Assembly (NCBI GenBank): GCA_001929475.1 | Contig: LXFE01000148.1 | Location: 1 to 32,314 of the forward strand | Length of the DNA: 32,314 nucleotides | DNA from: Neolecta irregularis DAH-3 | Lineage: Eukaryota; Ascomycota; Neolectomycetes; Neolectales; Neolectaceae | Direction of reading: 5' to 3' | Shown here: in pieces, positions 1,636 to 29,220 of the stretch | Position numbering within the stretch: position 1 is the stretch's first letter | How the letters are laid out: every line of letters starts with the position of its first letter | Program-made: the position numbers and the translations under genes | The notes under the pieces: generated by a model | Seen by the model: the letters and a program-made list of their open reading frames with translations, nothing else | Databases searched by the model: none | What the model was told of the DNA's origin: nothing

Positions 1636-3094
1636 ATGTTCTCCCCACCTGCCCTCCATGGAATGAAAAATCTAGATCGCTCATTATTCCATAAAACAAT
1701 CAACCTCTCAGCAGCTCGAGTTTCTGGCAACCAAATTCCTCTCTTTCAAAGAAGCTGTCACCAGTATGCCAATCTTCCTACCACCTAACTCAAAGAGACG
1801 TCTTCAAAGTCCCAAGACTCCGTAGCATATTGCAGGACGGAGACGATCGACTCATCTTATTACGACCAGGCGTTTTACCAGATGGTAATTATTCTTTTTC
1901 AAAAAAGATTTTAAATTAGATCTCTCAACGTTATCTACACCCACAAGGCAGTTCATTTCTCAACATTCAATAAAAATTGAACCTTACAAACTTGAACTGG
2001 ACTATTCTTATTGGAAAACTGGCATCTATTATCTTGTACCAAAATTAATTTATAGACGACATCCTATCCAGCATTCTACCCAAACACCTCGATGAAATCC
2101 CAGGAGGATTCACTCTAGTCGGCCATATTGGTAATCCTCCAAACTTTTGTCTAACATTTGAGCCCACTTGAATCTCCGAGATCAGTATCTCCCATATAAA
2201 CACATCATCGGCCAAGTCATCCTCGATAAAAATTATAGTGTAAAAACAGTGGTAAATAAACTCGACATCATAGACTCTCAATTCCGCAACTTTCAAATGC
2301 AAGTACTCGCAGGACCCGCCGAATTCATCGTCAAGCAGGTCCTTATTGACATAAAATGCAAACTAACCAACAGCGAGAAAATAATTGTACCTTTCATTTT
2401 GACTTTTCCAAAGTTTATTGGAATTCACGATTGGAGACGGAACATGCACGGCTGATCAAATTATTTGAAACACACGGCATTGTCTGTGATGTTTTTGCGG
2501 GAGTGGGTCCATTTGCTGTACCTGCTGGAAAGAATGAGACATTTGTTCTTGCAAACGATTTAAATCCATCGAGTTATTTAAGTCTTGTTGAAAACATTCA
2601 TTTTAATAAAGTATTCTTGTTAAACGGCTCGATTGATATCTAGGTCGGCGCATTTGTACGCGGATATAACCTTGATGGAGGAGATTTTATCCGACAGAGT
2701 CCGAAATTAGCTGAGGATCTTGGAAAGACTGCTAGCGTTACCGTGGGCCGGTTAAAAAGGAAACAAGATAGAATTATCGCTGTGCCGCGGTATATCTCGC
2801 ATTATGTCATGAATCTCCCGGCTTCCGCCATAGATTTCCTGGGCAAGTATAAAATTAGTATATATTGACCAATTAGCTCATTTTCGAGGGATCTTTTCCG
2901 AAAGATGTATTCCTGACGATAAACTACCAATGATTCACGTTCATTGTTTTTCAAAAACGATGCCTGCTGATGACGATTTACTCTTGCATATTCGCAGGTC
3001 ACTTGCATTCAACATTCCCAGTGCACAAGTGTCGATTCATAATGTCCGAAGTGTAGCGCCGAATAAAGTATATTTTGCAAATGTCACAGGCTGA
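1636..3094 (+). CDS. TRM5: tRNA (guanine37-N1)-methyltransferase
   Basis: Trm5 transfers a methyl group from S-adenosylmethionine to N1 of G37, next to the anticodon, and prevents frameshifting; in fungi it acts in nucleus/cytoplasm and mitochondria. Eight exons (1636-1763, 1796-1884, 1920-2021, 2056-2130, 2163-2338, 2374-2610, 2644-2842, 2877-3094) give 407 aa, normal for the family. Visible in order: MFSPP...[10 protein letters not shown] at the N-terminus; GHIAHLNLR and GQVILDKN near 110-150; [16 protein letters not shown]; the SAM-binding [14 protein letters not shown] near 230-242; NDLNP near 250; [21 protein letters not shown]; and a C-terminal [11 protein letters not shown]. Introns at 2022-2055 and 2843-2876 begin with GC; the others are GT-AG of 32-35 nt. 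The start is the only ATG that gives the conserved N-terminus. The 3' end converges on eIF3d with a 106-bp gap. Confidence 0.95.
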
Positions 3095-3200
3095 TTGAAA
3101 GGAAATGTACTGTTGTTCGTTTCGATTACCTAAACAAGTCGCATTTGCAGATACATAGACGGGAAAGATTTTTTAAATGTATTATATCTACGACTCAAGT

Positions 3201-5035
3201 TCATGCTGTAAAATCTTCTTCTTCCTCGCCAGTTGAATATACGCGAACAAGAGGCCTATTTGGATCCTGCGAAAATCAGAATCATGTTCATGAGCAAAAC
3301 ATACCTTGATCAGCACAGATTTCCCTTCCGGCATCTTCATGCACATGTCAACTATAGTTCTAACGATTCCCCATCCATTTGAAATATTCAAGTTCATTTG
3401 AGAAGCGAAATCACGGGGCCTGTAGCCACACACTCCCACTACAGAATGTTTAGTCGCGTCCTTGGGATTCATCCTCGACACAAATCTAATCGTCAGCCTT
3501 GCACATGAAAAATGTAACCCGAGTTTCATTTGATCGGCTCCAGCTAAATAACTCTGCACCGCCCATCGAGCTAATTTAAAATTGTTGTTTTTCATTTCAG
3601 TCGCAACGACAGCACCTCTCTGAGAATCCAATTTTGCACGCCAATCAATTCCACTTGATCCAGCTGCCTTTGAGTCAAATTCATTCAAAGCTTTTATAGT
3701 CAGGAATTGAGTTTCACCAGACGGTGTGAGCAAAACTGCATCGATTTCCGTACGGACAATCATCGAGAGAGGTTCTTCTTCACTTATACTCAAATCAAAC
3801 CGTCGGTATCGGTATCCTTTATTAGCTAATGGGTCCGTCTCTTCTGATTCATTGTAAAACGGATCGGGATGTTGAAATTTATGAACCTGAGTAGATTCAG
3901 AAACAACTTGGACGCCAAAGTTTTGGACTATATAAGTTGCTTCCAACCTCAATGCGCTCGAGGTGTTGATTACTTCTTTGATTGTGTCGTCGTCTTGAGG
4001 GGGATTAGCCGCGTTTTCATTGACGGTTACGTAATCTCATGTTAGTCTAGGGTTGTTCATTGAAGAAAATACCAAACGGTCCGTTTTCTCGTTTGTCAAG
4101 GAATAGTTTGTTTCCTTCCCGATGGACGATGATATCCCATGGTAAAACAGACCTTGGGGCACACATCAAAAGAGAGAGAATATTATCCGTTGCAAAAATC
4201 GTAGCTGTGTCTGATTGTGCTAATTTCTGGATCACTGGATCGTCTGTTGTAGTTGGATTGAACTGTACTCGATCAATGCTTTGAAAGATACGTTCGGTTT
4301 TTGGAGCGATTTTATCGTAACTTTTATCGTAAAAATTAAGAGATCCATAGGTTTCGCTGATGTTAATATAGTATTAAAGATTGGCTTACACATCCTCGCC
4401 CTGGCTTACATCCAAATTGAGTTTACTCAAACGATTAAATTCGATTTCATCGACAAGTTTCCAAGTGGGTTTGATATTGATACTAGCATCGCGAATCTTT
4501 GTGGGTTTATCATAATCTTTCCAACCCATCCGTCTGCCTCGGCCAGCTTGATTATTTTGTTGAGGTCGTCGATTATCCTGAGCCGAAAGTCTTCCTCCAC
4601 CGAGTCGCTGAAGGTTACTTCGTCCACCACGACCAGGTTGACTAGACCCTCTTGTAAGTCGAGACTTGTCTGCAGACTTTCGGGCGATTGGATCTTTTGC
4701 TTTTGATGAAGATTTATTGTCAACGACGCTAAATGATCCTTCTTCTTCTTCACCTTGCTGGAATGCAAAAACAGAATTTAGTCCAGCTCCATAGGCTTGA
4801 TATTGATCTAAAGTTAATTATATCATTTAAAAAATGCACCTCTAATTCCGCGTTGCTGACGTCCGGCGTCTCGACGGTCTTTTTCACCGTCAGCAGTCCA
4901 ATCCGCGATTTTCCCCAGTTTATCGCCTTTACTGTACGGCGCATATGGGACATCTGCTAATGGATCATCTTCAGGGGCAGTAGCCGGAGGACCCCATCCT
5001 AATGTTTTTGGGAATTCTGGAAGCGCAAATGTCAT
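3201..5035 (-). CDS. eukaryotic translation initiation factor 3 subunit d
   Basis: eIF3d is the cap-binding subunit of eIF3 (Moe1 in fission yeast). Six exons (5035-4840, 4807-4390, 4356-4073, 4035-3519, 3485-3305, 3266-3201) give 553 aa. The N-terminus reads [17 protein letters not shown] then [15 protein letters not shown] basic, glycine-rich middle ([34 protein letters not shown]) is followed by [13 protein letters not shown]. The core is very conserved: [78 protein letters not shown], then FVSRMNPKD and [21 protein letters not shown]. It ends [20 protein letters not shown]. Introns are 32-38 nt. The 33-nt intron 3486-3518 is a multiple of three with no in-frame stop, so its retention would insert 11 residues without breaking the frame. 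Confidence 0.97.
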
Positions 5036-5124
5036 GGGCACTGGAACTGAGATTTGGAGGTGACTTCGTAGATTGTGGCAAGTCACTCACGTTCACCAAT
5101 CCTAAAGATTTGCAGATTTATAGA

Positions 5125-6161
5125 CTACAGGATTTCTGATGCGATCCACTGCGAAATCTCATTATCTGTTTGAATAAAATTTCCCCGGCCATACTTTTTT
5201 CCCACGAGTCCTGCTTCCATTGCTGAGGCTGAAACATAAAACGTAGCTGGTACGCCTTGAATGTCGACTTTTATGATGTCGCCATGTTTGGAAGAAACCT
5301 CTACCATCTGGAATCAGCAGGGATATGATGAAGTGAATACAACGGTCCCAAAGGAGAATGATTTCTCCAAGTTCTGTGTGAATGCGGGTGTTTGCCCGTA
5401 TAGCCAATTGTCTGTCTACTATCGGTAAGGGGTCCGAAGCGGCGATACCTGAAATTCTTTCTCTATTTGGTGTACATCTCCTGTTCTCGCTTCATCCTCT
5501 GTGACATGGACAATTTGACATTCCCCATAGTGTTGTTGAAATTGCATGCAAACACTTTTGACAAATTCTTCATGTGGAATCTCTAGATTTTGAACACTAC
5601 TCCTGACACTATCGATGCCCATTATGCGCAGACCCTTTCTAGTTGATCTCAAAAGCCTATTCAAGTTTTCTAGATTTGAATGGAGGAGCATTGTTCCATG
5701 GTGATACGCTCGGCCTTTGGAAATTTTGAAAGCCGATCCAGAGACCTTTTTACCATAAAGAACAATATCGTGACGATGGTTGACGGTTGTATCTCTTCCC
5801 ATCATGTTCAAGGCTGAGCTCACCAACTGGGCATTTCCAGAGCGGGTGAATTCGGATGACTGCATGAATACACAATAGTTTGTGTTTCCGAGGTCGTGGT
5901 AGACCGTGCCGCCGCCAGATTTTCTGCGGACAAAAGGAATTGAACGGGACTGCAAAAGAGAAAGGTTTATTTCGTGCCAAGGATTTTGATTACGACCGAT
6001 TACTACGCAGGGATTGTTTCGATAGATGAATAGGGAGGTTTGAAGGGGTGTATGGAAGAGAAAGTCTTCAAAGGCGAGATTGAGATAGGGCGAGAAGAAT
6101 TTGGAAATGTAGATTGTCTTTCGTTAGTTGCGCGGGAGAGAGGCGATGCCCGCGGAAGCAT
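5125..6161 (-). CDS. lipoate-protein ligase / lipoyltransferase, mitochondrial
   Basis: This LplA-like enzyme (AIM22 type in yeast) attaches lipoate to the E2 and H subunits of mitochondrial dehydrogenases and the glycine cleavage system. Exons 6161-6150, 6117-5449, 5415-5341 and 5307-5125 give 312 aa. Seen: YISKFFSPYLNLAFEDFLF; CVVIGRNQNPWHEIN; FVRRKSGGGTVYHDLGN (the RRxxGGGxVYHD lipoate-binding loop); RHDIVLYGKKVSGSAFK with the catalytic-type lysine; GRAYHHGTMLL; NWLYGQTPAFT; and a C-terminal domain with SKHGDIIKVDIQG. The first intron (6118-6149, 32 nt) has a GC donor (GCATCG) and a CTAAC branch site. The proposed start gives only MLPR before the conserved region, so a mitochondrial presequence on another first exon, or an in-frame upstream start, is possible. 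It lies 89 bp upstream of eIF3d on the same strand. Confidence 0.92.
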
Positions 6162-8235
6162 GCAGGAGGCTTCGCTTGAGAGCAAAAACAAGATGTGCAA
6201 GAGTGGCGAAGGCACTGCGTTTTGTCGGCGGTTCGTTGCAGAAATGAATTCGATTAATAATAACACATTTACAACATCCAACAGGTCATCTATTCCATGA
6301 ACCAGATGCACTAAATGATAGCTCCTATCCCAGACATGAGGGTTTGGGTTACATGCTTGATATAATGAGGTAGCCTACATACCTTCCTACTTCTATTACT
6401 TTATTATGCTATTCTAATGTACTGTGTTGTTGTTCTTGTCTTTGTATTAATTAAAGGCCCTTCCGCGAGGAGAAATAATAGCAACTGGGGAAATTGCCTG
6501 ATAGAAATCAATTTATGTGAGCAATTTTTGTTGTTGAATGGGGGATTGCCGTCAGTCTGAGCCACGCAATGTGATCGGACTCGGTAAATTAGCAATTCCG
6601 GTCGCAGGCGGCGGGTTTTAACCACCTGCCTCGTTCTTTTCTCGACATCTTCAAAAGGCAGACAGAATCCCAGCCTTTCGGACAATAGCGTGTCCAACCG
6701 CCCGCCCGCCGTGGTCGACTGTTCGTGAGAAAGTGCTCCATGGTGATATAAGTTGACCAAATTTTCAAGTTGGGCAGACATTTGTAACCCCTTTTGACTT
6801 GAAACCAAATTTGAAACAATATACCAAGCTATACACCTGTTCCTTTTAACCAACCCGCACAATTGCCTGCTGGAGCACTCTCAGGCGGGCGGTTCAGATC
6901 TCTTCAGCGATTGGTTCAGAACTTTTTTTATTATCACCAATCTCACTTACAATTCACTATCCTATCTATTTTGGCACGGGTTCTGCTTCAAACGTCGGTT
7001 CTCTGTCTTCTCGAGAGTATCTTCGTACCGAGAGTATGGGGCGTGCTGACGAGTCACCGTCGGTAAACGGGGCTTAGCTTAGCTTATCGCGCAGATTCTG
7101 GTTGTAGAGTATTGCAGGGGGTTCTGATATATATCAGAAAACGATTCTTAGAGGAGATGAAGCGAAAACGATTCATTGATTCTTTGCGTGGATGGATAGA
7201 GCATTATCCAACGCCGTACAAAGAGGCAGCTACATAACTACTTATAGTTTTACAAGTATGAGCCACGTCATTGTAGTAAACCAAGGAAGCGTATAATAAT
7301 AGAAAACCCCATCAGATAACCGGAAAATACTACGTGGACCGTTTTCCTGCGACAAGCTTTTCCATTTATTTTTACCTAGAGCATGTACTGGAAGGAATTA
7401 TGTTGTGTTCTGCAAGTATATAGTATAGTCTCGCGCCCCTCTTTCTTCCTAACAAAATATCAAAGATCAAAAAGAACATCCTTAAGAAGCCTACCTGCTA
7501 CTACCTACCCATTTAACAACAATCAACACTCACTCTATTCTCATCCTTAAAACGACTTTAATCTTTGGGACGGATTCTGCGCGAAATGCCCTTACACTAG
7601 CAGTTCCTCAAATCACCCCTGTCTCGGATGCACATAATTCCGAAGCTATCCTAGCTATAAGTAGGCAGGCCCAGGCTAAACAGAATTCCTTTGACCTCCT
7701 CTTATCGCACGGAATAATTCAGCTTCCATGCCACAGTTTTCTTTGCTAATGTGGCTTATAGCCTTGTTCATTGCTTCTTCGTCGGGTATGGTACTCTTTT
7801 ACACTGTCTGAATTTGTAGTTGAAGGCGCAATCATAGAACGTGGCGCCTTTCACTTAAAAGACTTACCATCTCCTTGTGAACCAATGGATCCCAACCCCC
7901 GCTGCCACACTTAAGACTTTCCTTATGGGAACTTTGAGTACCTTGCTTCTTTTATGTTAAACCGTGTCTTCCAATATATATTCCAGAAGTGAGGGAATTG
8001 CCTTTGCTAGGACTGTATATCTTATTTGAGTAAAGAATATGTGTTGTGTATATGCTGCATGAAATTCTCATTGGTTTTACCACTGGGGCATTCCAAACGA
8101 GTGGATGGATCGTCAACAGGCAGCTATAAGTTGGTTACTTAATCACGTGGATAAATCCAGCCATGACCAGTTGACATTTTATTCCCATGACTCACTTCAC
8201 TCGCGTGCTACCACTTGATCTGCGCGCATTCGAAT
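6162..8235. other. gene-poor interval of about 2 kb
   Basis: No ORF here matches a recognisable protein. 6404-6862 (minus) and 6863-7066 (plus) are open by chance. 6815-6910 is the inverted copy of the TRM5-promoter repeat. 7080-8200 is AT-rich with short stretches such as a repeated AAAACGATTC (around 7138-7175). A 31-codon minus ORF near 7685-7780 shows no conserved feature. No tRNA was found by eye. Confidence 0.5.
6815..6910 (-). repeat. inverted copy of the TRM5-promoter repeat
   Basis: Reverse-complemented, this stretch reads GAAGAGATCTGAACCG, then GAGTGCTC, GGGTTGG and GTGTATAGCTTGG, in the same order and spacing as 1519-1605. It is the second copy of a dispersed sequence in opposite orientation. 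No terminal repeats or target-site duplications are visible by eye, so I cannot assign it to an element class. Confidence 0.55.
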
Positions 8236-9521
8236 ATGAGGGTACTAGGCACAGCGATTAGGCGATTTTTGCGGCGGTGGCAGTACCGCGAACAGCGGCC
8301 GGCAGCAGGCGACCGGGTATTTGTCGCGGTTTCTGGAGGTGTAGACTCTGGTGTTGCGGCCGCACTTGTAAAGCAGCAGGCATGGAAATTCGGCCTCTAC
8401 CCAGCTAAAAGAAGGGTTTCCAGGTGGAGGGTATATTTATGCGGTCGTGGGATGCAGAAGGGTGCAGCTCGAGTGCGGATCTTGATGCTGCTCGCGATGT
8501 TTGCCGGTCGCTGGATATTGTTCTGCACACTGTTGATCTGAGTAAAGAATACTGGCTGCGGGTGTTTGAGCCGCTGCTGGCGGAATATGTGCAAGGTCGA
8601 ACGCCGAATCCCGATATTGAGTGCAATTCTCTGATCAAGTTTGACTGCCTGTGTGCACATATAGACCATAAAGTGAAATTGAGTGGAGCAAACTGGTGGT
8701 TGGCGACTGGTGACATTCCCGGGCGACGCCGCTGATGCAATAGGCCACTATGCGCGCACTGCCCGCCTGCGCCGTTCGAGTTTGTTGCTGCGACCTGCGG
8801 ATGCAAACAAAGATCAAACATTTTTCCTTGCGCGCATCCCGCAGCACGCTCTCCAGCGGGTATTCCTCATCACGTGCGCCGCTGACGTCAGTCCCTCTTC
8901 CCGCTTGCACACTTAACCAAACACCACGTCCGCAGACTTGCGCGCCTGTTAAATCTTCCAAATGCAGATCGCAAAGACTCACAAGGCCTCTGCTTCGTCT
9001 CGCCTGCCCATTCTCGCTTCGCCAATTTCCTGCACGAATATATCCCAAACAACCCTGGCGATATCATCACCACCGACGGCCAAAAGATCGGCACCCACAA
9101 TGGCATCTGGCATGGCACCATAGGCGAAAAGAGCCACTGCTACGTCACGAATCATAGGTGGTTTATTGTTGCAAAGGATCCCGTCAACAATACAATCATC
9201 GTCGGGAAGGGCTGGGACAACCCATTGCTTTTAGCACGCAGAATATTCGCTGCACACTGGAAGTTTGTTGATGAAATCCCTCGGCCTCCTGGTACTCGTA
9301 TCCCCAACTTGCATGTCCAAATCAGACACCGCGAACACGCAGGTATGCAATTTTGTTTATCAAGTTGAACAATAGGATATGCAAATGTCCTCATTCTACA
9401 GGATGGCAAAGCCGTTGTAGAGTTGGAATCTCGGATTCGTGCTGCAGCTCCCGGACAGACTGTTGTTGTCTGGGACGATGATATGTGTATCGCAAGTGGA
9501 ATCATTGAATCTGCATATTAG
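8236..9521 (+). CDS. mitochondrial tRNA-specific 2-thiouridylase
   Basis: This MnmA/MTU1 (yeast SLM3) family enzyme thiolates U34 of mitochondrial tRNAs for Lys, Glu and Gln. Five exons (8236-8379, 8412-8709, 8744-8859, 8892-9342, 9376-9521) give 384 aa. The N-terminus (MRVLGTAIRRFLRRW) is basic and suits mitochondrial import. The PP-loop AVSGGVDSGVAAAL is at about 31-44; then GIFMRSWDAE; GRTPNPDIECNSLIKF with the first catalytic-type cysteine near 119; ATGHYART; NKDQTFFLARI; DSQGLCFV with the second cysteine near 220; GTHNGIWHGTIGEK; and APGQTVVVWDDDMC with SGII at the C-terminus. Intron 8380-8411 has a GC donor (GCATGG). The region is GC-richer than its flanks. The 3' flank is rich in TGTA motifs. 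Confidence 0.95.
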
Positions 9522-10143
9522 ACTGGACATTGGTTCAATGACCTCTTAATCTATGTACTATTCCCACAAATGTCATGTATATTTTGTGTAGTGTAATTGT
9601 AAGTGTAATATGTAATATGTAATTGTAATTTTAATCTGTACAGCTATCATTATGGACAACTGTATATCTGTATTATAATCTATATCCTTGTATCTCGGTT
9701 AGCTGAACAATAAACCTTTGACACAGAATATTCTGTTCTCCCAAGCATTTATCTACCCATTTTTATCTTTGCTATCCTGAGTGGCAATTGATACAAAATG
9801 AGTCCTCAGTTTAATTTAAATTCTGTCGACAGATGTGCTGTTGATTTTACCTCACGCTATCTGGGTCCCAAGTTACTCTTTTCAATAGATTCTCGAAATT
9901 CTGGTTCATCCCATCACATATTTATCTAATTTGTTTAGTGCAGAACTTGATACTAGCTATCGTATCAAAATTTCCTGACTGTTTCTATTTTTTCTGTCTA
10001 TTCCTATAATTTCCGTTCATTCCATCTTTTCTCTCAACCCCAAGCGAATTCGATGATAGAAACTTGCTATTCAATATTAACAATTTTATGCACAAATTCC
10101 TGCTCTAATTTCCTGATTTGACCCCTGAAGTTCATCAGTACTT
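9522..10143. other. AT-rich 3' flank between convergent genes, TGTA-rich
   Basis: This stretch of about 620 bp between the convergent thiouridylase and MIC19 genes has no credible gene. About 9570-9680 contains eight or more TGTA tetramers (TGTATATT, TGTAATAT twice, TGTAATTG twice, TGTATATC, TGTATTATA), in part a TGTAAT microsatellite at 9590-9632. It probably holds both 3' UTRs. Confidence 0.6.
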
Positions 10144-10630
10144 TCACTCAAAAATGATTTGCCCATACTTGAAATCCTCTACTTCCTTCCAACATTCCAA
10201 CGGCCTGTGTTCATGTAATTTTAGACAACCCACTAGATTCTCCCGAACTTGGTTAACACCATCTAATTCCCTTAATTTTGGACGTTTTTCCAGTTTCTTT
10301 TTTAAATTTGCGATATCGTTAGATAGAATAGTGCTATTTAGACCGGAATCATTTTCTATATTTATTTTTGATAATTCAGATGCTTGACGTTCAAAAGCTT
10401 CGGATTCAAGAAGTTCAAGTCTCTTCAGCTCGGCATGGACTCGAGATTGAATATGTGATTCAAGTGTTATACCTCTGCTTATATCGGCCTTCCTTTTAGA
10501 TACGACGTGAAAAAGAAAATACTTTTTTCGAGTCGAGATGTTCGACTAGTACCGAGGAGAGCCCTATAGGATAGGATCGCGGGTTTTGGACTACATAAGG
10601 CTGCGAAGAGGCCGACTGACTATTTCCCAT
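10144..10630 (-). CDS. MIC19: MICOS complex subunit MIC19 (CHCH protein)
   Basis: MIC19 is a peripheral inner-membrane subunit of MICOS, which shapes crista junctions. Two exons (10630-10523, 10488-10144) with a 34-nt intron give 150 aa. The start MGNSQS fits an N-myristoylated MG terminus, typical of the family. A DU-type helical part follows: LDSKKADISRGITLESHIQSR, then VHAELKRLELLESEAFERQ and a coiled coil through about 100. The C-terminus has VRENLVGCLKLHEHRPLECW, a CHCH-type pair of cysteines ten residues apart, then KEVEDFKYGQ. The splice acceptor was chosen to keep phase 0 (SKK then ADIS); one three bases earlier would break the frame. Confidence 0.9.
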
Positions 10631-12325: not shown

Positions 12326-14255
12326 ATGCATCTGCCCGCATTACTTCAAGCCCTTCGCTCTCAAAAGAGACATCAGGCGCAGGAGGTCTCGCAGTATCGG
12401 TATGAATCAATGGATATGATCTCTCCCGTGGCGCGCCCACTTTTGCGAAAGCCAAAGCCCCGGGAAGAAGTTTGTCGCCTATCAACTTCCAAAAGTACGA
12501 GGTCCCTTTTGCCGGAGACGAAGGTGGAGAAGACAACGGAGCATGTTGGAGGACCGTGTTTAGCGAGGTGGGGTGCTGATGAGGATATCACGACATGGCG
12601 AGGTTACGTAAACGCTTACAAGCAGGTATGTCTCTGTTCTGTCTGCAATTTCAAATAAAAACGAATGAAATTCGTCTCCACGTAATCGCTGCGAGAAAAC
12701 CATGTGATGTATTGACATATTTATTTGGTTGGCTCTTTTAGAAGTCGCAAAAACATTGCTCTGTTTTCCGCAAATATTCGACACCCTAAATTTAGATTTC
12801 TGATATGAAATATTTGCCATAAAATTAAATTGCAAGGTTATACAAAGATCCTCGTATTCATCTCTTTTAAATTTCTTTCTTGATTGTAAATCATGTACTT
12901 ACTACTATTCAGGGCCGGTTAAACTTCTCGAATCCCCCCTTGCCACCCCCAGATATGCCACACATGAACTATTTTCCACCTCCTATACCTGATAATGAGA
13001 AGGAACGTCTGGCTGCATGACTCCCACTGATTCTTTCGAGTAATGAAAAAGGCCGTTCGTGCATACGACACCCCCCCTAATGCGGCCAACTTCCAAAGAA
13101 TTGTTTCTGCATTAAGAAAGTTATTCAATACTAATTTAGCATTTGTATCTCTAATCCATGATAAAAAAGCATTTGTGAAATCTCAAGTGGAATTTGGACT
13201 GTAATTGCTTCCTCCGGAACTTGGCTGATATGCTAGAGATGCCACAACCAGAGATATAACCTTTTGCGGTCATACAATTCTCGGTAGCGAACCTCTTGTT
13301 ATTCTAGATACACTTAAAGACTGGCGACTAAAAGGAAATCCTTTAGTGGTGGGTCCTCCTTACCTAAGATTCTACGCAGGATCTCCAATAATAACCCCTG
13401 TTTGTATTTTTTTGGGATTCTACTAAGGGCTAGGAAGGTTTTGCAATAGGGACGGTTTGTATATTAGATTTGAAGGCTCGCGAAAGCTTCTCTGCACAAG
13501 CTCGGCGTCAGCTATCTGAATTTGCTCGAATCGCTATGGATGAGATCATCAGACTTAAAGAACAAAATGCTTCTGCGATGTCAGCTTTACTGGACGATGA
13601 AATGGTATCTGGCGAAGCAGTGTTCAATGTCAATGGGAAGAAGTATAATATCCAATACAGCAGAACAGAGGAATTACAAGAAGAAACTTCCGAAAGTGTT
13701 TTGAAAGCACCGAACTACTCTTCTGCTAAGCCGGATAAAAGAACTTCGTCAGGAAGGACAATTCCCCATGAGCGAAATGCTTCGCAAAGCTCAAATAATC
13801 CGCAAAAGCACTCATCGCATCCACAAGCTGACAATGTCACTGAACAATTGAACGCCCTTGATATCGCTGTAGAACTTGTTTCTCAAACACTGAAATTGGA
13901 CCTGGTGTATATTGTGAAAGTGTCTCCCTCGCGAAATGTTTGTGAATGTAGCCTTCTAGTATCTCATGGTCTTTCCACTCCGCTTCCAGTATTTGACCCG
14001 ACTTTACACTTACGAGCCTTGAGATCAGATAATGGATTGGTTTACGAGAATCCGACCAACGAGGATCAAGTTTACAAAATAGGAGTTCTCGTTCCGGTGT
14101 GGAGGGAGGGCGAAGATAGAACGGAGTGTGTTAAGGGTGTCATACTTGCTGGATTTGCAAAATCTGGAAGATCAAAAGGATTTACACGGAAGGAAGTTAA
14201 TTATCTGAGGGATTTTGGACCATTGTATTCTTCTATATGGTCAGCCCTCACTTAG
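12326..14255 (+). CDS. fungal GAF-domain protein
   Basis: Five exons (12326-12625, 12913-13014, 13052-13200, 13237-13399, 13434-14255) give 511 aa. The basic N-terminus leads to ITTWRGYVNAYKQGRLNFSNPPLPPP and PHMNYFPPPIPDNE. A GAF domain follows: KERLAAVRAYDTPPNAANFQRI, FNTNLAFVSLIHDKKAFVKS, TTRDITFCGHTILGSEPLVI, LDTLKDWRLKGNPLVVGPPY, LRFYAGSPIITPEGFAIGTV, CILDLKARESFSAQARRQL, then a helix EFARIAMDEIIRLKEQ. The C-terminal third (about 360-511) is low-complexity then a possible second GAF-like fold (LDIAVELVSQTLKLDLVYIV). The GAF architecture resembles bacterial two-component sensors, but no kinase or cyclase domain follows. The ligand is unknown. Intron 12626-12912 is 287 nt, far longer than any other here; intron 13015-13051 has a GC donor (GCATGA). 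The start is the first in-frame ATG and could lie upstream. Confidence 0.85.
12626..12912 (+). other. unusually long intron (287 nt), possible RNA host
   Basis: The flanking exons join in phase (AYKQ then GRLNF) and the ends are GTATGT...CTATTCAG. Other introns in the window are mostly 32-54 nt. Inside, a C-box-like GTGATGT at about 12704 and a D-box CTGA at about 12799 lie some 95 nt apart, with only three or four terminal bases able to pair. This is weak evidence for a box C/D snoRNA. Confidence 0.25.
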
Positions 14256-20228: not shown

Positions 20229-20448
20229 CGCGCTTGCCGCAGGCGACTGGTTGCTCGGCAACTGGCGGGGGCAGAAATATGCTCTCGGAGCAGTGGGCGG
20301 TAGTTTGGGGCGAGTCGCGGCTGAGGCGACAGTGCGGCGCTGGAGCATCCGAGCAAGAGCAGAGCGGGGCAGTTTGCCCGGCCAATTTCGGTACGCTAGA
20401 CCTGTCACAAGGTAAATATTGCGTCCACGTGGTCTCTTGACGGGCCAG

Positions 20449-21276
20449 CTACAAACAACCCAGTGCCCCGCCATCCCGCCCAGTACTGGGCAACGGTGTT
20501 TCCAGCATGGCGCCCGAGCTGCAGTAGTCTTCCCGCAGAATGGCCTCCCAGATTTCCGCCGCTCTTTCCACTATGTCGTCTTCGCCTTTAGCGCTCAAAA
20601 TACCTGCAATCGCACTTAAACACAACCGCTCATGAAGCAAAAAATACACATATGGCGAAGCAGGGATCATGGATCGCTTGCGATGTGGAAGTGCCGGAAG
20701 TGCTGCCCCATGAGGCCGAAGCGTCATGTCGATTCGCTTGAAGATTTCAGGCGTGATATACCGATCCCGCAAGTTCAGATATATCCTATTCTCCCAACAG
20801 AATCTTCGATTTTGGAGCTCCTGTCTAACAACACATGGCTTGGAGATCTCGACGAGACGTCGAAGAAATGTTGACGACATTACAATACATCCGTTTCGGA
20901 TAATGTGTGCTGTAGGACCGTTTTCAATTTCATCGGCCAGAACATCGAGATACGTCAGAAAGCTTTGATCTTGACTTTGGAGCGCGGCGGCGATTTGCGA
21001 TGTCATATCCAATACTGAATAGAGAAAGGCAATGTACGCCATCGAGATCGTTTTAGCCTTTGGCCGAAACACATCGGATACTAAACGTAAACATGGACTC
21101 TGATCAACCTCGAGGAAAAATCGCTTGTTGAGAAGGGAATCGTAACAAGATAAAACCGTCAACGACAGCAATCGAGAAACCCGATAAACATTTACGATAC
21201 TTCGAATATCTGTATAGCGCAATATCTGGGTAAGCAGCTCTGTAGGAATCTTGGAGAAAACGTCGGGTCGAGACAT
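20449..21276 (-). CDS. F-box protein
   Basis: This single-exon gene of 275 aa has an N-terminal F-box (VFSKIPTELLTQILRYTDIR, then SIVNVYRVSRLL, about residues 6-40). Such proteins link substrates to the SKP1-cullin ubiquitin ligase. The remainder is mainly helical (AKTISMAYIAFLYSVLDMTS, TYLDVLADEIENGPTAHIIR, ENRIYLNLRDRYITPEIF) with no WD40 or leucine-rich repeats I can recognise. The start ATG at 21276 lies just before the F-box. It is one of the few intronless genes here. The last part overlaps a GC-rich stretch shared with the GLY1 promoter. The substrate is unknown. Confidence 0.75.
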   Translation of the reverse strand: MSRPDVFSKIPTELLTQILRYTDIRSIVNVYRVSRLLSLTVLSCYDSLLNKRFFLEVDQSPCLRLVSDVFRPKAKTISMAYIAFLYSVLDMTSQIAAALQSQDQSFLTYLDVLADEIENGPTAHIIRNGCIVMSSTFLRRLVEISKPCVVRQELQNRRFCWENRIYLNLRDRYITPEIFKRIDMTLRPHGAALPALPHRKRSMIPASPYVYFLLHERLCLSAIAGILSAKGEDDIVERAAEIWEAILREDYCSSGAMLETPLPSTGRDGGALGCL

Positions 21277-23293
21277 TGCTGGATGGGGCGAAATGAGGGA
21301 CTGTTATATATCCTGCTTGAGTCACTAACCGCGTGAGAAGCAGAATTCTTGTATTGAAACCAATTAAAACGCCTCATTCGTTAACGAATATGTTCGTACC
21401 AAATGTTAGCCTTGTTTCTTTCGGAGGTGCCATCTGCACACAAGCTACTTTTCCTTAGTCACCTGAATTTCAAGGGAATGAAGCTAAGTTTCGTGAATAC
21501 TGATTAGATAAGACTTGATTCATGAATTATTGCTTCAAGACCCAGTAGATGTCGATGTTTCATCAATGGCTCCTAAAAAATTACCTGATCAATAATACCA
21601 TTAGGCGATTGGCTATGATCCTTTTATCTTACTTCTTGGAAGAATATTGAAGAATTCGTCTACATCATCGACTTTAGTCAGCTACGGGAATATCCTCCGG
21701 TAAATTTCGAATGGTCTGAGATAGTTGGTCTAGTACTGAAAGTATTCAGAAACCAAGGATCTTCTATCTATATATCGATACATAAAAATCACAAGGTGTG
21801 AAAAGCTTGAAATTATCTTTCAATTGTCTTTAGGCTATTGTTCTCAGGAAGAGGATTAAGGGAAGGCCAATTATCGCGAGCTTGTCATCATACTCATGAG
21901 GACTATTATATCAAATCTCGTGTTTCATACGAGAGTATAATCAGTCTTCCACGAAGATCGACCTCCGCTATACGTAGAGCTTCACACTATCGCAGGCAAA
22001 AAGTGCATAGGCTGTCCTACAATTCTCAGCACCAAAGTTTTAGCCTGAAGAATTACGGACGAAACAGTAGAATCCGAATCTAGGATTTACATTTGACAGA
22101 TGAGATGATTGGGGTTTGGAGCGAATTCCCTGCATGTGATAAAGAAAAGCGCGAGTTCGGTTTATGCCAAGAGACCAACCCACCTTTTAAGTAAAACGAA
22201 ACAACATGAAACTAGTTTCGAGAAATTCTTGCTTTATCAAATAACCAACAGTTTCAAAGATCGACAATTTGCTTTTGCTTTACTGCTGTGACTCTAATCA
22301 TTCTGTCTTGATTAGGCCTATATCCTTGTGATAATCGCCAAAGCGGTCTTATTATTTCATTGCTGAACAGTCCTCCTGAGAAATGAAAGCTCGAACCAAA
22401 GGGGATTTGGTTGTGCGCCTAAAAAACACCAATCACTGTAGTAGTTCATTGTCACAGGGAATCAGCACTGACCGGATGGCATGTATGTGCCTGTGCACGA
22501 TTGAGTTTAGAGTGAAAGGAGCTCAAGCAATTCTTTAAGATCAACATGCCACACTCACAAGAACGGGCCATAGCTTCTAAAGGAATTTTCCCAGGCCAAG
22601 AAGGTTAAATGGCAGCTAACTCGCTTCATTTTTAGTCGCTTTTACAACCCTCCATGTATCCACCGCTTTTTTCAATGTGAGGACGCCTGTTAACACACAG
22701 GTTCCAATCAGTGTTCACAGTGAGTTTTAATTGCTTTGACAGGCGGTGGGTTTTTGGTGGAAATGGGGTTTGAAGCTTTGGTGTGCGAGGGCGGGGTCTT
22801 GGAGCGAGGAACCAAGTTATCAAAAGACTTGACTCGCTATTCAGACAGCATCCTCTTCTATCAAAAAAGAAACCTTCGCAGCCCTTTTATCGTATCCGCA
22901 GAACACAAGCTATGCCAAGTGGTTCAGAAAAACAAAAATGATAAAGTAGTAAATAAAAATAAAAGATAAGAAACTTCTCTAAACTAGACCTAGTGAGACA
23001 ACCAGCCGCATTCCCCTATACAAGAGACCTATGGCAAGCCAGACCGATTCAATGACCTAGTTCTTCAAAGTTAAACGAAACACGACGTTGGTTTTGGATG
23101 ACCGCGTGCTGAGACGTCTAAAAATGCCGCGCAAAATAGTTGAGGTAAATGATGTGATGATATGGGATAGTGATAGGAGTTCCGAAGGAGCTGGGGGGTA
23201 ACTGTTGGGGTAAATAGGGATAGTGGTAGGGTGAGGGAGTAGAAGAGGTTTGTCGCTGTAACCGGAAAATGAAGAAATGCGTATTTCCAAGTT
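21277..23293. other. gene-poor interval of about 2 kb
   Basis: No ORF carries a recognisable domain; 21838-22083 and 22736-22969 (plus) are short and basic but show no conserved motif and no plausible splicing. Local features are an AT-rich 21400-22330 and a purine-rich tract at about 23140-23250. No tRNA was found by eye. Confidence 0.45.
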
Positions 23294-23499
23294 ATCAGGA
23301 CGGTATCATGGAGATAATCATCATATAGGTTCTCCTTCTATGAGGTCACATCTTGATCCGATAACCCTTTGCCGACGTCAACCTTTGGAGGAGCCAAACT
23401 GCCCTGATTGCGAACTTCCCAAGCTAGACTAACAATATAATTCATTTCGCCTTCTTTTGTGCCAAGTATATCTAACATTTTGGTGCGTCCAATCTCACG
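23294..23499 (-). pseudogene. inverted, truncated copy of the 3' part of the downstream membrane-protein gene
   Basis: Read on the minus strand, this 206-bp stretch encodes EIGRTKMLDILGTKEGEMNY and AWEVRNQGSLAPPK. It matches 25013-25218 (plus) at over 90% by eye, with no visible indels. The copy has no start codon context, changes a TGG codon to TAG (TCATGG to TCATAG), and loses similarity abruptly at both ends. It is a segmental, inverted duplication that cannot make the full protein. It may be transcribed as antisense to the gene, but no promoter is evident. Confidence 0.85.
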
Positions 23500-23927
23500 C
23501 CCAAGGTGTGCTACATTATTCACTGGCTATAATCGTGCTTACTCCGAGTTACCAAAACTCTGGTGGATTAAGTCTGACGGATTTAACTCGTAATTCCGCT
23601 CGAATTAAGCTGTTGTGTTATTCAAAGTTTACCTAATTCAGCCACTTCGTCATCAAGAACTTCATCCCACAAACTTTTAAGTATTTTCTCACAATTTCGT
23701 ACCTTGGATAGTAACGTTCCGGTTGGAAAACCTATATAGCTTGCCGGATTCCTAGCAGTATGCGGTTGGCTTTCGAAGGTAAATTATGAGTGTATCACAA
23801 AAGAGACCTCAGACAGCGCTAAGCTACTCTTAATCTGCATATTGCCCCGCCTGCCTCCCTGTCCCTCTTCCCTTTTCTACTCCTATTTGATCATTTATTC
23901 CAATTGATTCTTTCTTGTTCCCTATCG

Positions 23928-25300
23928 ATGGTTAATCTACGATCTTGGATTTCGTTGGCTCTGCTACTTGTAGTACTTTACATAATATACAAGATCGACA
24001 GGTGTACAGTTCTTGCGACAATCAGCTCAGAAGCTGATGGTTTTCCAGACAATGAACCCGATATTGCATATTTCTCTTCGCGCAGGATGTTTTCATCTAA
24101 CCATCCTTTTGGAGTAACAGAGATATGCTCCACTCATCATATCCTAACCAGCCCATCGAATCCCCACGGAATCACCCCAATCGACTTCGGCTCCGCGAAA
24201 CTCAATCCAAATATCCTTCCTCTTCCCCCCAATGCAAAATATCCGTATTTTATCATTGGGAGATCTACGACGGACGGTTCGTACCAGGAAATTGTGGCCT
24301 GCTTTGCGGATTTTGAACATCTACCATTGACACAACGTCGTATTCTCAAGTGCGTTGACGAACCAAAAGTGATCACGGTCCCAAGCACGAAGGCCAAAAA
24401 ATGCGAGAAAACATGGATGGAATTAGTGAAAGGACCTCATGACCCTAGAGTTTTTTGGAGTCCGAAGGGAGAGCCACTCATGACTTTTGGCACTCAGAGT
24501 TCATTTACTTGTTTTGGCCAATGGATTGTCGATTTACGGGCTGTTTATCAACCATTGAATGACCTTCTCAGTGGAACTATCGGGGGAAATATTAATTTTT
24601 CCGAGCTACAAGAGCTTCGACGGCCTGAGCCTTATGGCGAATTCGAGAAAAATTGGTTTTTGATCTGGGATGAAACCGGAGATATGTATGTTCATCACGA
24701 CTCAAATCCCAGAGTCTTTTCAAAACTCGGCGTCGAAACCCCGGTGAATTTGGCTCAAGAGAAGCCTTGCAGATCACGTATACCACTCTGGTTGAGTTTC
24801 AATAACTTGCAGTACCAGACCCATCGCTGCTTCCAGAAGGTGTCGACCATCATCAATCGACAAACACCCTCCTTGTCTTCCTATGCAAACGCTTGTCCTG
24901 CCCACCCAATCCCCCACAAGTCCTTATATCTATCCATCAAAAGAAATACTTTGAGATGTATCACGCATTCTATCAGCGATATGTAATTGTTTACTCCGCA
25001 ACTTTTCCATTTCATGAGATTGGACGCACCAAAATGTTAGATATGCTTGGTACAAAAGAAGGCGAAATGAATTATATTGTTAGTCTAGCTTGGGAAGTTC
25101 GCAATCAGGGCAGTTTGGCTCCTCCAAAGGGTCACGTCGGCGAAGGGTTATCGGATCAAGATGCGACCTCATGGAAGGAGCATCTATATGATGGTTATCT
25201 CGATGATACTGTCCTGATCAGCCTAGGAATCGAAGACAAATATAGTGCGATGCTCGATGTAATAGCACAGGACTTGGTTGGATGCTTGGACACGTGTTAA
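23928..25300 (+). CDS. type II membrane protein, fungal glycosyltransferase-like (unassigned family)
   Basis: Two exons (23928-24777, 24813-25300) around a 35-nt intron give 445 aa. A short basic N-terminus is followed by one membrane anchor (SWISLALLLVVLYIIYKI, about 5-22), giving a Golgi/ER type II topology with a lumenal catalytic-like domain. Motifs include KYPYFIIGRSTTDGSYQEIV, MELVKGPHDPRVFWSPKGEP, TFGTQSSFTCFGQWIVDLRA, EFEKNWFLIWDETGDMYVHH and a C-terminal GRTKMLDMLGTKEGEMNYIV. The GPHDPRVFW...F...W.VDLR pattern resembles fungal cell-wall mannosyltransferase-like proteins of the WRY/beta-mannosyltransferase kind, but I cannot confirm membership. The start was chosen as the ATG just before the anchor. 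An inverted broken copy of its 3' part lies 430 bp upstream. Confidence 0.75.
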
Positions 25301-25627
25301 TTTGGTTCTTTTTTGGCGATGTAATACAACGTGTTTTGAGGGTATATTATTATAGTCGATTGAGTTTTAATCTTTATATGCTGTATGCATGTTCTCTGGG
25401 ACTTGATATTAGAATTCATTACAGAAAAAATCCCCTCAAGAGGTCTGACTATGGTTAGTTAAGGAATTCTGGGTACACTTCAAGCCTCCTGCGAAAAATA
25501 TCTGTGCAAATCTCAAGCTGGTTGAACAAAGGAGAGACGGTCTCAAGTATAGGAGCTCCATTCATCTAAAACGGAACTTTGAAGAAGTTGAATCAATTTT
25601 CTCCACCACCATATTCTGCCAACCAGC

Positions 25628-26295
25628 ATGGTAACACCACCTTTATTCAACCCGAGTCTGACCAATTGTAGTCACAGACACTCCGTCCATATTTATCTGC
25701 TGTCCGTTCTTCTCTGGCCGCTGCTTTGTGTCTAGAGAACTTTGCATCCCAAGTCGTGGAGCGCCACAATAAACCTGAAGTTGAAGTCAGGTCTAGTCTC
25801 CCATATACGACATTCATCCGCCATGCTGACTGCTGTTAGAACGACACCCGAGGTCCTTCTGCAGCCTATTCATATTTCGCGGAACGAATCAGAACGTGTA
25901 CTTATAGAACCATCAATTAATTCAATTCGGTTCAGCATCAAAATTAAGCAGGCAGATGAAATCGAACATGTTCTAGTTGATCGGTTTACTAGATTTTTAA
26001 TGGGCCGTGCAGAGGCTTTCTTCATTTTGCGGAGAAAGCCAATCAAAGTAGATTAATCGACAATGCATTTTTGACAACTAAGGGCTATGATATATCCTTT
26101 CTAATCACCAATTTTCACACAGAGAGTATGCTAAAGCACAAACTTGTGGATTTTATCATCGAGGTATCCTTGATTTTGGTTCATTCAGTTGATCTGTAGT
26201 TCATGGAGGAAGTGGACGCGGAAATCAATGAAATGAAACTTTTCCTGAACGGAAGGGCCCGATTCATTGCTGAAAGTTTTTTGGCACAGGCATAG
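25628..26295 (+). CDS. Arp2/3 complex 20 kDa subunit, ARPC4
   Basis: ARPC4, with ARPC2, forms the core of the actin-nucleating Arp2/3 complex. Five exons (25628-25630, 25672-25790, 25840-26047, 26083-26163, 26200-26295) give exactly 168 aa, the family's length. The first coding exon is only the start codon; a 41-nt intron follows, then [19 protein letters not shown]. Then [119 protein letters not shown] and [11 protein letters not shown]: nearly the whole conserved sequence. Introns are 41, 49, 35 and 36 nt. Its stop is 33 bp from the stop of the convergent gene at 26329. Confidence 0.97.
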
Positions 26296-26328
26296 CACAC
26301 TTTTTTGACGTTTCTGACATTAGTTCGA

Positions 26329-26923
26329 TTAATTTGGTAGCATAGGAGATCCGGTTCCAATCATCTCCTTTTTGATGTCCATATATTCTATGAAAGGCCT
26401 GATGAAGAAATGAACTCTCAGGTCCATCAGCCTTTCTTTCCGAGTTGATGAGTCTAAAACCTTATTCAATTCTTCTATGGCCTCGATTTCCGGCCAGCAA
26501 ACATTGCCATTGACACGACGATAAGCATCCTTCGTTTGTTTTGGCAGTGAAATCTTGCGATCCACACGAAAAAATGCACTGAACGTTAAGCCTTCATAAG
26601 AGATCATAACTTTCTTACTATCAGTCATGGATTCGTAGTGATTTATTCTTCCAATTCGATATACTCCTGTATTAAACTTTTGCAGTTTGATACCTTTCTG
26701 ACCCCTTATTCTAAGAGTAGTCATGCTTCCAAGTTTGGCGATCTCTCCCTCCGGGGTGTTGAGTTGTATATTGTGAATCGACAAATTGTCTTAGGTAGCT
26801 CTAGGTTCATTGAGATAACTGGATGACCATCCGCGAATTTGAAAAGCTCATCAAATAATTCAAAATCCAGGAGTCTGCATTCTGCTTGTCAGTATATTCA
26901 AGGTGACACATTCCGAGCTTCAT
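26329..26923 (-). CDS. unidentified conserved-looking protein
   Basis: I do not recognise the family. Exons 26923-26908, 26881-26828 and 26789-26329 give 176 aa in frame; the second intron (26790-26827, 38 nt) is secure and the first (26882-26907) would be only 26 nt and is doubtful, so the start is uncertain. The main exon encodes a compact, charged domain: SIHNIQLNTPEGEIAKLG, GVYRIGRINHYESMTDSKKV, MISYEGLTFSAFFRVDRKIS, CWPEIEAIEELNKVL, VHFFIRPFIEYMDIKKEMIG and a final GSPMLPN. The early part (LLDFELFDELFKFADDN) looks like a helix. No signal or membrane segment is seen. The gene ends 33 bp from the ARPC4 stop and shares a 360-bp divergent promoter region with the PFK-2 gene. Confidence 0.6.
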
Positions 26924-27282
26924 TTGATGCCAACTGCGGGAGTGAAGTAGCCTCGAGATGTGATGTTCACAGTATATCTAAGTATCTGAGAAACTTCAGT
27001 TATTCATTGATTTAGCAAATATGAAAATGCTATTAACCAGTCGGCCATGTGTTACAAGACTAACAGATGTGCTCTGCTATTTTCAGTGGTCGTCATCCCA
27101 GTCACAAGCGCTAGAATTTCGCAACAACAATCAAAGCCGCAGATTCCCACAAATTCTCCCTCATAAACCCTCATAAAGGCCAACTTACGATGTCCAGAGG
27201 ACCTGCAATGCAACTCGGGTTTAGAGATGGCCCGCGACATGCAAACCTATTACTTCGAAAATCTAGTTCGTCTGCGCTGTGG

Positions 27283-29220
27283 ATGGATCAAACTTGTACG
27301 CCGATGACCAGTCGTCCTCCTAGTCCTAAAATTGGGGCGTATGAAGATTATTTCTTGTGGTTCGAGCACTGATCTTGTAGAACAAAAGGGACTATTGATA
27401 TTCCTGGGCTTACGCGGGCGAGAGGTATGTTATTCTTGACAGGCTCCAGATAATGATATTCAGGCGGTCGCCGTAACTCAGACGATATTGGTTCAAAGTT
27501 GTGCATCGCTTTAGTCGGCCTACCTGCCAGAGGAAAATCCTATATTGTGAAAAAACTGGACCGCTATCTTAGATGGTAGTCGATCAGATTACATCAGGTT
27601 CATTGAGCAAATAGGCTTCAACATTCTACGCAAATCTTCAACGTCGGAAATTTGCGCCGAAGAAGATCCTGTGCATTAAATGACCACGATGCAAAATTCT
27701 TTGATCCCCATAATGAAGCTGCTAGGAATGTCAGGGAAGAGTTGGCAAAAGAGTGCCTCGAAGAACTAATTCATTTTCTCCTCTATGAGGGAGGCACTGT
27801 GGGTATCTTAGGTATATATCGACAAACTCTGGTCAGAGATTGACAAATTTCATAGACGCGACGAACTCTTCTCGTAGCAGGCGAAAAATGATTATAGAAA
27901 GAATAGCCCAAGAACCACATCTCAAGAGTAACTGTTAGTTTTCTGTAACTCTCTAATCGTTGCAGTACTTTTCATCGAGTCGATATGTACGGAAAGCGAG
28001 ATACTCGAAGCGAATATACGTCTGAAGCTTTCTGGACCTGATTATCATGACAAAGATCCCAGGTTATCACTTGTAGACTTTCGGAAGAGGATAGAAATGT
28101 ATGAGCAAGCCTATGAAACCATCGACGAAGACAAAGAAGAAAACATACAGTATTGCAAAGTAAACTCTTTCATTTCCGATGATATATAATAACTTGTAGC
28201 TGATCAATGTCGGAAAGAAAGTTGTTGCTTATAACATACAAGGATATCTCTCAGGTCAGGCAGTGTATTTCTTACTGAATTTCAACCTTGCACCACGGAT
28301 GATTTGGATTACACGTCATGGTAATTCTTCTTGTATATCTGTTTTGATAAGTTAGGTGAGTCTGAAGATAACCAAGAAGGAAGGATTGGAGGGGATGCCG
28401 TTCTAACCGAACGAGGACATCGTTACGCAAAAGCTCTTTCTAGATTTCTCGAACGTATGGCTAGTGTGAGCAATTCACCCAACTGATCTTTAAGAACAAC
28501 GCCGTGATTTTAATGATCGCCAAATTGAACTTCGCCAATGTAAATCTCCACTAATGTTCACAAGTTCACCTCCTCCGCCGTTAATAGAAAAATCATTCAG
28601 CGTTTGGACAAGCATGATGCAACGATCTATCCAGACATCGGAGTTTTTTGATGAAAGTGTTTACGACGTCAAAATGATGAGGATGCTGGACGAAATCAAC
28701 GCTGGTATCTGTGAGGGAATGACATACGAAGAAATAAAGCAGAGCTATCCAGAGGAATTCGAGGCAAGAAAACAAGATAAACTGAACTATCGCTATCCTG
28801 GGCCAGGAGGTGAGAGTTATTTGGATGTCATCCATCGACTGAACAGTGTGATTGTTGAGGTTGAGCGGTACGAATCTATACATATTGATTCACTAATGCT
28901 ACATTCTCAAGGATGACGGATCATGTATTACTCATAGGTCATCGTGTTGCAACCAGGATTTTGCTTGCCTACTTCTTGAACCTCGATCAGAAGGCATGAA
29001 AATACACATGTGCTGGAAAATATGCTGACTCTTCTTTCTAGCTTATTACTGACCTTGATGTTCCCTTGCATTCATTGTACGTTTTAGAGCCAAAACCATA
29101 TGGGACAGGCTTTAAAAAGTATTTTCGATTCAACCTGTTTTGGTTCTCTAACGCCGCAGGTTCACGTATGACGAAGGGAATGATCAGTTCATCGAAGCAA
29201 ATATCAAAGGCGTGTATTAG
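27283..29220 (+). CDS. 6-phosphofructo-2-kinase / fructose-2,6-bisphosphatase
   Basis: This bifunctional enzyme sets the level of fructose 2,6-bisphosphate, the main activator of glycolysis. Twelve exons (27283-27338, 27381-27424, 27464-27575, 27615-27811, 27856-27933, 27966-28159, 28200-28320, 28356-28454, 28495-28867, 28912-28993, 29042-29118, 29160-29220) give 497 aa. The N-terminus reads SRPPSPKIGATKGTIDIPGL. The kinase has the Walker A loop ALVGLPARGKS, FNVGNLRRR, FFDPHNEAARN, DATNSSRSRRKMIIERIAQE and SGPDYHDKDPRLSLVDFRKR. The phosphatase has ITRHGESEDN with the catalytic His, GRIGGDAVLTERG, LDEINAGICEGMTYEEIKQS, RYPGPGGESYLDVIHRL and LLIGHRVATRILLAYF. Both halves look functional (RHG and GHR histidines kept). 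The intron at 28994-29041 has a GC donor (GCATGA). An in-frame ATG at 27190 could add 31 residues. Confidence 0.95.

What the first reader, a model, noticed from the sequence alone, without database searches (positions are those of the whole stretch)
2022..28994. GC-AG introns with a GCAT donor are unusually common
Six introns in five genes need a GC donor to keep conserved protein sequence and phase: 2022 and 2843 (TRM5), 6149 on the minus strand (lipoate ligase), 8380 (thiouridylase), 13015 (GAF) and 28994 (PFK-2). Five of six begin GCAT (GCATCT, GCATCG, GCATGG, GCATGA twice), as if GTAT had become GCAT. One is the usual GCAAGT. That is about 10% of introns seen; typical fungi have about 1%. 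It suggests relaxed U1 recognition of position 2 in this lineage, compensated by other donor bases or by the tiny intron size.
Basis: partly seen in the sequence, partly recalled or inferred. Interest (0 to 1): 0.75.

Follow-up and report, generated by a model that had tools for sequence, protein, structure and literature searches.

The report
GC-AG introns in Neolecta irregularis
In the early-branching fungus Neolecta irregularis, whose introns are only about 37 letters long and begin with unusually loose signals, a few percent of introns appear to start with GC instead of GT, which looks several times the usual fungal share, and public gene models break at some of them.

Summary
The window is a contig of Neolecta irregularis DAH-3. 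For four of the six introns (2022, 2843, 8380, 28994) GC is the best of 15 non-GT donors in profile alignments, and GT-only parses lose 16-100 nats. 13015 is moderately supported, 6149 weak. Outside the window (about 200 kb) GC alone stands out: 21 calls against a mean of 2.0 for 14 other dinucleotides. Ten were given to Pfam; nine matched a family and all nine scored better with GC. In the eight large gains the GC junction also beat splicing one codon earlier or later. A kinase/DEAD set not chosen for GC is weaker: 2 firm GC donors (up to 4) of 74, which alone does not exclude 1%. My estimate is a few percent genome-wide (about 3-8%), against about 1% in fungi; 10% is not established. GCAT is not a special class: 8/16 GC donors have AT at +3/+4, against 26/65 GT donors, because GTAT is this genome's ordinary donor. 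U1's donor-pairing stretch is canonical. The larger oddity is general donor looseness (+5G in 24/65). Compensation at +5 is suggestive. No RNA data were available.

The parts
2022..2055 (+). GC-AG intron, TRM5, 34 nt, ctg|GCATCT...TATAG|acg, phase 1
   Evidence: profile alignment; NCBI model P0121 splices here
2843..2876 (+). GC-AG intron, TRM5, 34 nt, tgg|GCAAGT...AATTAG|ctc, phase 1
   Evidence: profile alignment; NCBI model P0121 reads through and ends at 2865
6118..6149 (-). putative GC-AG intron, lipoate ligase N-terminus, 32 nt, cgg|GCATCG...CTAACGAAAG|aca
   Evidence: ab initio only: gain 0.8 nat; upstream of the LplA domain
8380..8414 (+). GC-AG intron, tRNA thiouridylase (MTU1/MnmA), 35 nt, cag|GCATGG...AGAAG|ggt, phase 0
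   Evidence: profile alignment, gain 16.1 nats, next best dinucleotide 12.6; NCBI model P0241 starts downstream at 8439
13015..13051 (+). probable GC-AG intron, GAF protein, 37 nt, gct|GCATGA...AAAAAG|gcc
   Evidence: spliced protein aligns through the junction to 4zmu_A, E 1.5e-27, with a 3-residue gap; junction outside the Pfam GAF match
28994..29041 (+). GC-AG intron, PFK-2/FBPase-2, 48 nt, aag|GCATGA...TTTCTAG|ctt, phase 0
   Evidence: profile alignment, gain 41.0 nats; NCBI model P0001 reads the donor as A-stop and ends at 28996
1764..3101 (+). TRM5: 8 introns in the donor-blind alignment (6 GT, 2 GC)
27425..29159 (+). PFK-2: 9 introns in the donor-blind alignment (1 GC; one placed 3 nt off its GTATGT), plus a GTATTT intron at the 3' end
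   Evidence: last intron from the gene-finder protein, coordinates by eye

Best explanation
These are ordinary U2-type (major-spliceosome) introns whose donor has drifted from GT to GC in a lineage with loose donors and very short introns (about 37 nt) with a strong CTRAY-like branch site. With the intron held by a short span and the branch site, and with general tolerance of poor U1 pairing, T-to-C changes at +2 are kept more often than in other fungi, so that GC reaches a few percent of introns. Shown: GC donors are required, to the codon, by conserved protein in several genes, and GC stands out from all other dinucleotides in the gene-finder test. Inferred: that these introns are spliced efficiently, that the share is about 3-8%, and that branch site and size carry the recognition.
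For: Profile alignments with GC best of 15 non-GT donors. GC 21 calls vs mean 2.0 for 14 other dinucleotides outside the window; at 6 nats 7 vs 0. Pfam gain in 9 of 9 matched candidates of 10 given; in 8 of 8 tested the GC junction beats one residue less and one residue more. Same intron position GT in one PAK-like paralogue and GC in the other. Canonical U1 5' stretch. Donor looseness: +5G 24/65, +4T 29/65. Branch matrix CTRAY-like; median length 37.
Against: No RNA evidence. The kinase/DEAD set has only 2 firm GC of 74 (P=0.17 at a true 1%), and in that set the count of GC gains of 10 nats or more (4) is little above other dinucleotides (0-3, mean 1.5), because a locus that needs a non-GT donor rewards many of them. 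At least one of the 21 calls is false (L006 3563: a 114-nt GT intron lies there) and L025 5532 and a few more are doubtful. The finder was limited to introns of 70 nt or less, so its length figures are bounded. GC introns are not shorter than GT introns.
Confidence: 0.72

Rival explanations
1. The genome-wide rate is ordinary (about 1%) and the window is a chance cluster that was noticed because it was a cluster.
For: The three window genes were picked for having GC introns. The set not chosen for GC has 2 firm GC of 74, P=0.17 at 1%.
Against: Eight codon-exact GC introns outside the window among about 450 called introns, although the finder recovers under half of such introns (112/240 at prior .04; 34% at 2 nats) and only those inside Pfam domains could be verified.
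Confidence: 0.15
2. The GC donors are sequencing or assembly errors (T read as C), or sit in decayed genes.
For: Only one assembly is at hand and no reads.
Against: Errors would have to fall on donor position +2 in many conserved genes that are otherwise open (UBC9, SLU7, PFK-2, TRM5 and others), and GC stands out from the other dinucleotides.
Confidence: 0.04
3. Neolecta has a distinct GCAT donor class read by a changed U1 or another factor.
Against: AT at +3/+4 is as common in GT donors (26/65) as in GC donors (8/16), p=0.57. The one U1 found has a canonical 5' stretch.
Confidence: 0.03
4. The GC introns are weak, regulated introns kept for alternative splicing or retention.
For: Weak donors such as GCATCT are expected to splice poorly; the NCBI PFK-2 and TRM5 models each read through one of them, as retention would.
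Against: They interrupt conserved domains of housekeeping genes; the NCBI TRM5 model does splice the 2022 intron.
Confidence: 0.1

Closest known systems
GC-AG subclass of U2-type spliceosomal introns (about 1% in fungi, as quoted in PMC7407476)
   Same: GC...AG ends, U2-type branch site, length like GT-AG introns, perhaps stronger remaining donor bases
   Different: share apparently several-fold higher; several donors lack the AAGT tail (GCATCT, GCATTC, GCACCC)
High-GC-AG algae: Aureococcus 39.6%, Micromonas pusilla 22.2%, Chlorella 7.7% (PMC3033335, passages read)
   Same: genome-wide excess of GC donors
   Different: the first two genomes have 69.5% and 65.9% G+C; here the sample has 44% and introns 38.8%
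Oikopleura dioica and Eurytemora affinis (PMC7072748, passages read)
   Same: relaxed donor position +2
   Different: there GA-AG exceeds GC-AG; here GA is at background in the gene-finder test (2 calls vs mean 2.0)

Membership tests
GC-AG U2-type introns | GC at the intron start, required by the protein (AG end was imposed, not tested) | tested here: met
   window introns; eight outside, codon-exact
GC-AG U2-type introns | canonical U1 with ACUUACCUG | tested here: met
   L001 1501-1646, 43.7 bits, below Rfam's gathering score of 69.5
GC-AG U2-type introns | compensating strong donor elsewhere (CAG|GCAAGT-like) | tested here: inconclusive
   +5G 11/16 vs 24/65 p=0.027; -1G p=0.39; +3A p=0.11; +6T p=0.26; half of the 16 were found with a donor matrix
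GC-AG U2-type introns | excised from RNA | not testable with these tools
   no transcript data at hand
U12-type introns | long ATATCC/GTATCC-type donor with TTCCTTAAC branch | tested here: not met
   judged by eye on the GC introns; the motif is recalled
Distinct GCAT donor class | AT at +3/+4 over-represented in GC donors relative to GT donors | tested here: not met
   8/16 vs 26/65, p=0.57; 7/14, p=0.56

The most novel reading that the evidence does not exclude
Neolecta has a naturally relaxed donor-recognition system. Intron definition has moved from the donor to a span of about 37 nt plus a strong branch site, so that donor positions +2 to +6 are all loosened at once and GC reaches 5-10% of introns in a genome of moderate G+C. 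This happened with a canonical U1 donor-pairing stretch and with U1C, METTL16 and SNRNP27K family genes all present.
Probability: 0.32. Interest if true: 0.62.

Novelty: new member of a known kind. Interest (0 to 1): 0.43.

Why it matters
Public gene models break here: the NCBI proteins for PFK-2, TRM5 and MTU1 in this window read through or start after GC introns. Neolecta is used as a reference for the origin of complex multicellularity in the Ascomycota (start of the abstract of PMC5309816), so its models matter. Biologically, loose donors together with canonical U1 and with METTL16 and SNRNP27K family genes present offer a test of what lets a spliceosome accept poor donors.

Tried and rejected
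A GT-only gene finder with introns up to 300 nt gave a long tail (90th percentile 132 nt), some probably false; I restricted it to 70 nt (on), which in turn made at least one false GC call (L006 3563). A donor scan without context found few GC (3) and few others. Rfam U6 was not found, but no control rang, so nothing is concluded. Loss of METTL16 or SNRNP27K as the cause of +4T was rejected because both families match in the genome. In the kinase set, free choice of donor gave 30 GT, 2 GC and 23 others, many of the latter within a few bases of a GT; so free choice with paralogue profiles is noisy and I first over-counted. The control led me to lower the firm count from 4 to 2: at L034 and L038 GC is the best non-GT donor, but at L035 (TA best) and L078 (CA best) it is only the fifth. 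L034 (first intron), L037 and L040 have further unclear GC options. Dropped: DEAD fragment L077 did not align; kinase fragments L053, L064, L065 gave no intron and L056 a poor match; flat choices other than GT or GC with no GT/GC partner at the same acceptor were not counted. Of the 21 GC calls, 11 were not given to Pfam, and the calls of the other dinucleotides were not either. In one search I mis-typed the L078 donor; corrected.

Full report
Where it is. The window is contig C201, bases 1-32,314, of an assembly of 8.96 Mb in 363 contigs. The top protein hit for PFK-2 is a Neolecta irregularis DAH-3 protein on a contig of 32,314 bases; Neolecta is in the Taphrinomycotina.

Checking the six. 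I wrote an aligner that places DNA on a protein profile and lets an intron begin with any dinucleotide at equal cost; an AG end, a branch-site score and a length prior are imposed. Profiles were built from database relatives without the Neolecta proteins. In PFK-2, TRM5 and MTU1 it finds 21 introns: 16 GT, 4 GC, and 1 placed three bases off a GTATGT. The GC introns are 2022-2055, 2843-2876, 8380-8414 and 28994-29041. As a control I allowed GT plus one other dinucleotide in turn: GC gives the largest gain of 15 in each gene, 100.5 nats in TRM5 (next 78.2), 41.0 in PFK-2 (next 40.3, TG, partly from another intron) and 16.1 in MTU1 (next 12.6). So a non-GT donor is needed at each place, and GC is best, but in PFK-2 and MTU1 the margin over a one-codon shift is small. 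These genes were chosen because they held GC introns, so 4/21 is not a rate. The GAF intron (13015-13051) is moderately supported. The lipoate ligase intron (6118-6149, minus) is only an ab initio call.

What the public models do. The NCBI TRM5 model splices the 2022 intron but reads through 2843 and ends at 2865. The MTU1 model starts at 8439, after the 8380 intron. The PFK-2 model ends by reading GCA TGA at the 28994 donor.

How common it is: gene finder. In the 232 kb held at that stage (window and L001-L027) I trained a simple gene finder (introns 26-70 nt). With GT, GC and one further dinucleotide allowed, GC calls outside the window that improve the local score by at least 2 nats number 21; the other 14 dinucleotides have 28 together, mean 2.0; at 6 nats GC has 7 and the others 0. 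Sensitivity was measured by changing called GT introns to GC in silico: 112 of 240 recovered at the .04 prior, 34% of 511 at 2 nats. Correcting for this gives 7-9% by strata and 7-8% by a context regression, bootstrap interval about 3-12% (20, 14 and 11 calls at three thresholds, L025 left out). That is likely high: at least one call (L006 3563) is false, since a 114-nt GT intron explains it (sequence, measured by eye), and a few others are doubtful. Taking only the eight Pfam-verified introns below and a sensitivity of 34-49% gives 16-24 among about 460, or 3.5-5% (my arithmetic).

Independent test of those calls. I gave Pfam 10 of the 21, each as the GC-spliced and as the best GT-only protein. 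Nine matched a family and all nine scored higher with GC: UBC9-like 141.6 vs 85.7, SLU7 159.3 vs 111.6, chitin synthase 210.3 vs 169.9, aminotransferase 110.6 vs 83.2, RdRP 174.6 vs 149.0, polymerase B 210.8 vs 186.9, MHYT 61.5 vs 41.9, HSP20 68.1 vs 59.0, IF-2B 149.7 vs 147.1 (not decisive). The tenth had no match. For the eight clear ones I then removed or added one residue at the junction: in 8 of 8 the GC junction scores best, by 4.0-11.5 bits (over the longer form alone 4.0-7.0 bits). With acceptor and frame fixed, the donor is thus placed to the codon, and there it reads GC. Three further candidates (Prm1-, Spf1- and Bre1-like) look right from recall of the families; no call tests them. 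Some gene names are recalled.

How common it is: a set not chosen for GC. Kinase and DEAD-box exons were located genome-wide. 42 kinase loci or fragments, 9 DEAD loci or fragments and one DEAD gene already held were aligned against profiles of their own paralogues. By a fixed rule (flat choice is GT or GC, or GT/GC shares the acceptor with the flat choice) there are 66 kinase introns; 8 DEAD introns were counted by hand. This method is noisy: in the first 22 kinase loci free choice gave 30 GT, 2 GC and 23 others. With GT plus one dinucleotide in turn over 51 loci, loci with gains of 10 nats or more number 4 for GC and 0-3 for the others, mean 1.5. At L034 (taa|GCACGT, gain 22.2, next 14.5) and L038 (ctg|GCAAGA, 10.7, next 5.3) GC is best and I count these as firm. 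At L035 and L078 a non-GT donor is needed and GC (aaa|GCATAT; aag|GCAATA or act|GCAAAG) fits, but other dinucleotides score higher. So 2 firm of 74 (2.7%, interval 0.3-9.4%; P=0.17 at 1%), or 4 of 74 (5.4%, 1.5-13.3%; P=0.007). This set is compatible with every estimate above and does not by itself exclude 1%. L030 and L034 are PAK-like paralogues that share an intron position, GTATGT in one and GCACGT in the other.

What the donors look like. GT donors chosen without donor preference (n=65): G at -1 40, A at +3 48, T at +4 29, G at +5 24, T at +6 25. A G at +5 in only 37% is far looser than I recall for fungi. Compared with 16 GC donors (8 from profile alignment, 8 from Pfam-tested calls), AT at +3/+4 is no more common (8/16 vs 26/65, p=0.57) and +5G is more common (11/16, p=0.027; 11/14, p=0.007 without L035 and L078; 5/8, p=0.25 in the profile subset; six tests, uncorrected). 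Lengths do not differ in a visible way. So GCAT is the C form of this genome's GTAT consensus. Called intron length has median 37 (5-95%: 32-48, bounded by the 70-nt limit), with 3.5 introns per kb of coding sequence and intron G+C 38.8%; with a 300-nt limit the median was 38.

Machinery. One U1 was found, with a normal ACUUACCUG; it scores 43.7 bits, below Rfam's gathering score. The zf-U1 (U1C), Methyltransf_10 (METTL16) and SNRNP27 families match above their cut-offs; the predicted METTL16-like protein keeps an NPPF motif (motif recalled). Loss of METTL16, tied to the +4 base in Saccharomycotina (PMC10581693, passages and start of abstract seen), does not explain +4T here.

Literature. Fungi average 98.7% GT-AG (PMC7072748, passages read), with outliers such as Meyerozyma guilliermondii at 6.67% major non-canonical sites. 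About 1% GC-AG in fungi is quoted in PMC7407476 (passages). High shares are known in G+C-rich algae (PMC3033335, passages). Searches for Neolecta with intron, splice sites and genome listed no paper whose title or abstract start deals with its GC-AG introns; the held text of the genome paper has no 'intron' (PMC5309816, term search). Supplements were not read, and most subscription journals are not in the library.

Verdict. Real and probably elevated, a few percent, part of a general looseness of donors; not a GCAT class and not a changed U1. RNA data would settle it.

Noticed in passing
window 2865, 8439, 28996: NCBI models P0121 (TRM5), P0241 (MTU1) and P0001 (PFK-2) read through or start after GC introns, while P0121 does splice the GC intron at 2022.
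   Followed up: yes
C351 12003-12963 (L028, L029); C309 24844-25008: METTL16 and SNRNP27 family genes are present although the donor consensus has T, not A, at +4, unlike the association reported for Saccharomycotina.
   Followed up: partly
whole genome G000: No U6 snRNA match with the Rfam model, though no control genome rang either; an intron inside U6, recalled from fission yeast, could hide it.
   Followed up: no
L030 467-507 and L034 470-506: PAK-like kinase paralogues share an intron position with GTATGT in one gene and GCACGT in the other.
   Followed up: partly
L035 469-509, L078 145-171: Two introns need a non-GT donor, but the profile does not pick GC as the best one; GC options lie a few bases away.
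   Followed up: partly
L006, reverse strand, about 3563-3676: A KH-domain-like gene has a 114-nt GT intron, so longer introns exist and a 70-nt limit makes false calls.
   Followed up: partly
window 31440-32314: G+C-rich, repeat-like stretch at the contig end with spurious coding calls (for example the doubtful GC call at 31775, where many dinucleotides were called).
   Followed up: no
window 29493-31361: A+T-rich gene-like stretch with a doubtful GC call at 30299; nature unknown.
   Followed up: no
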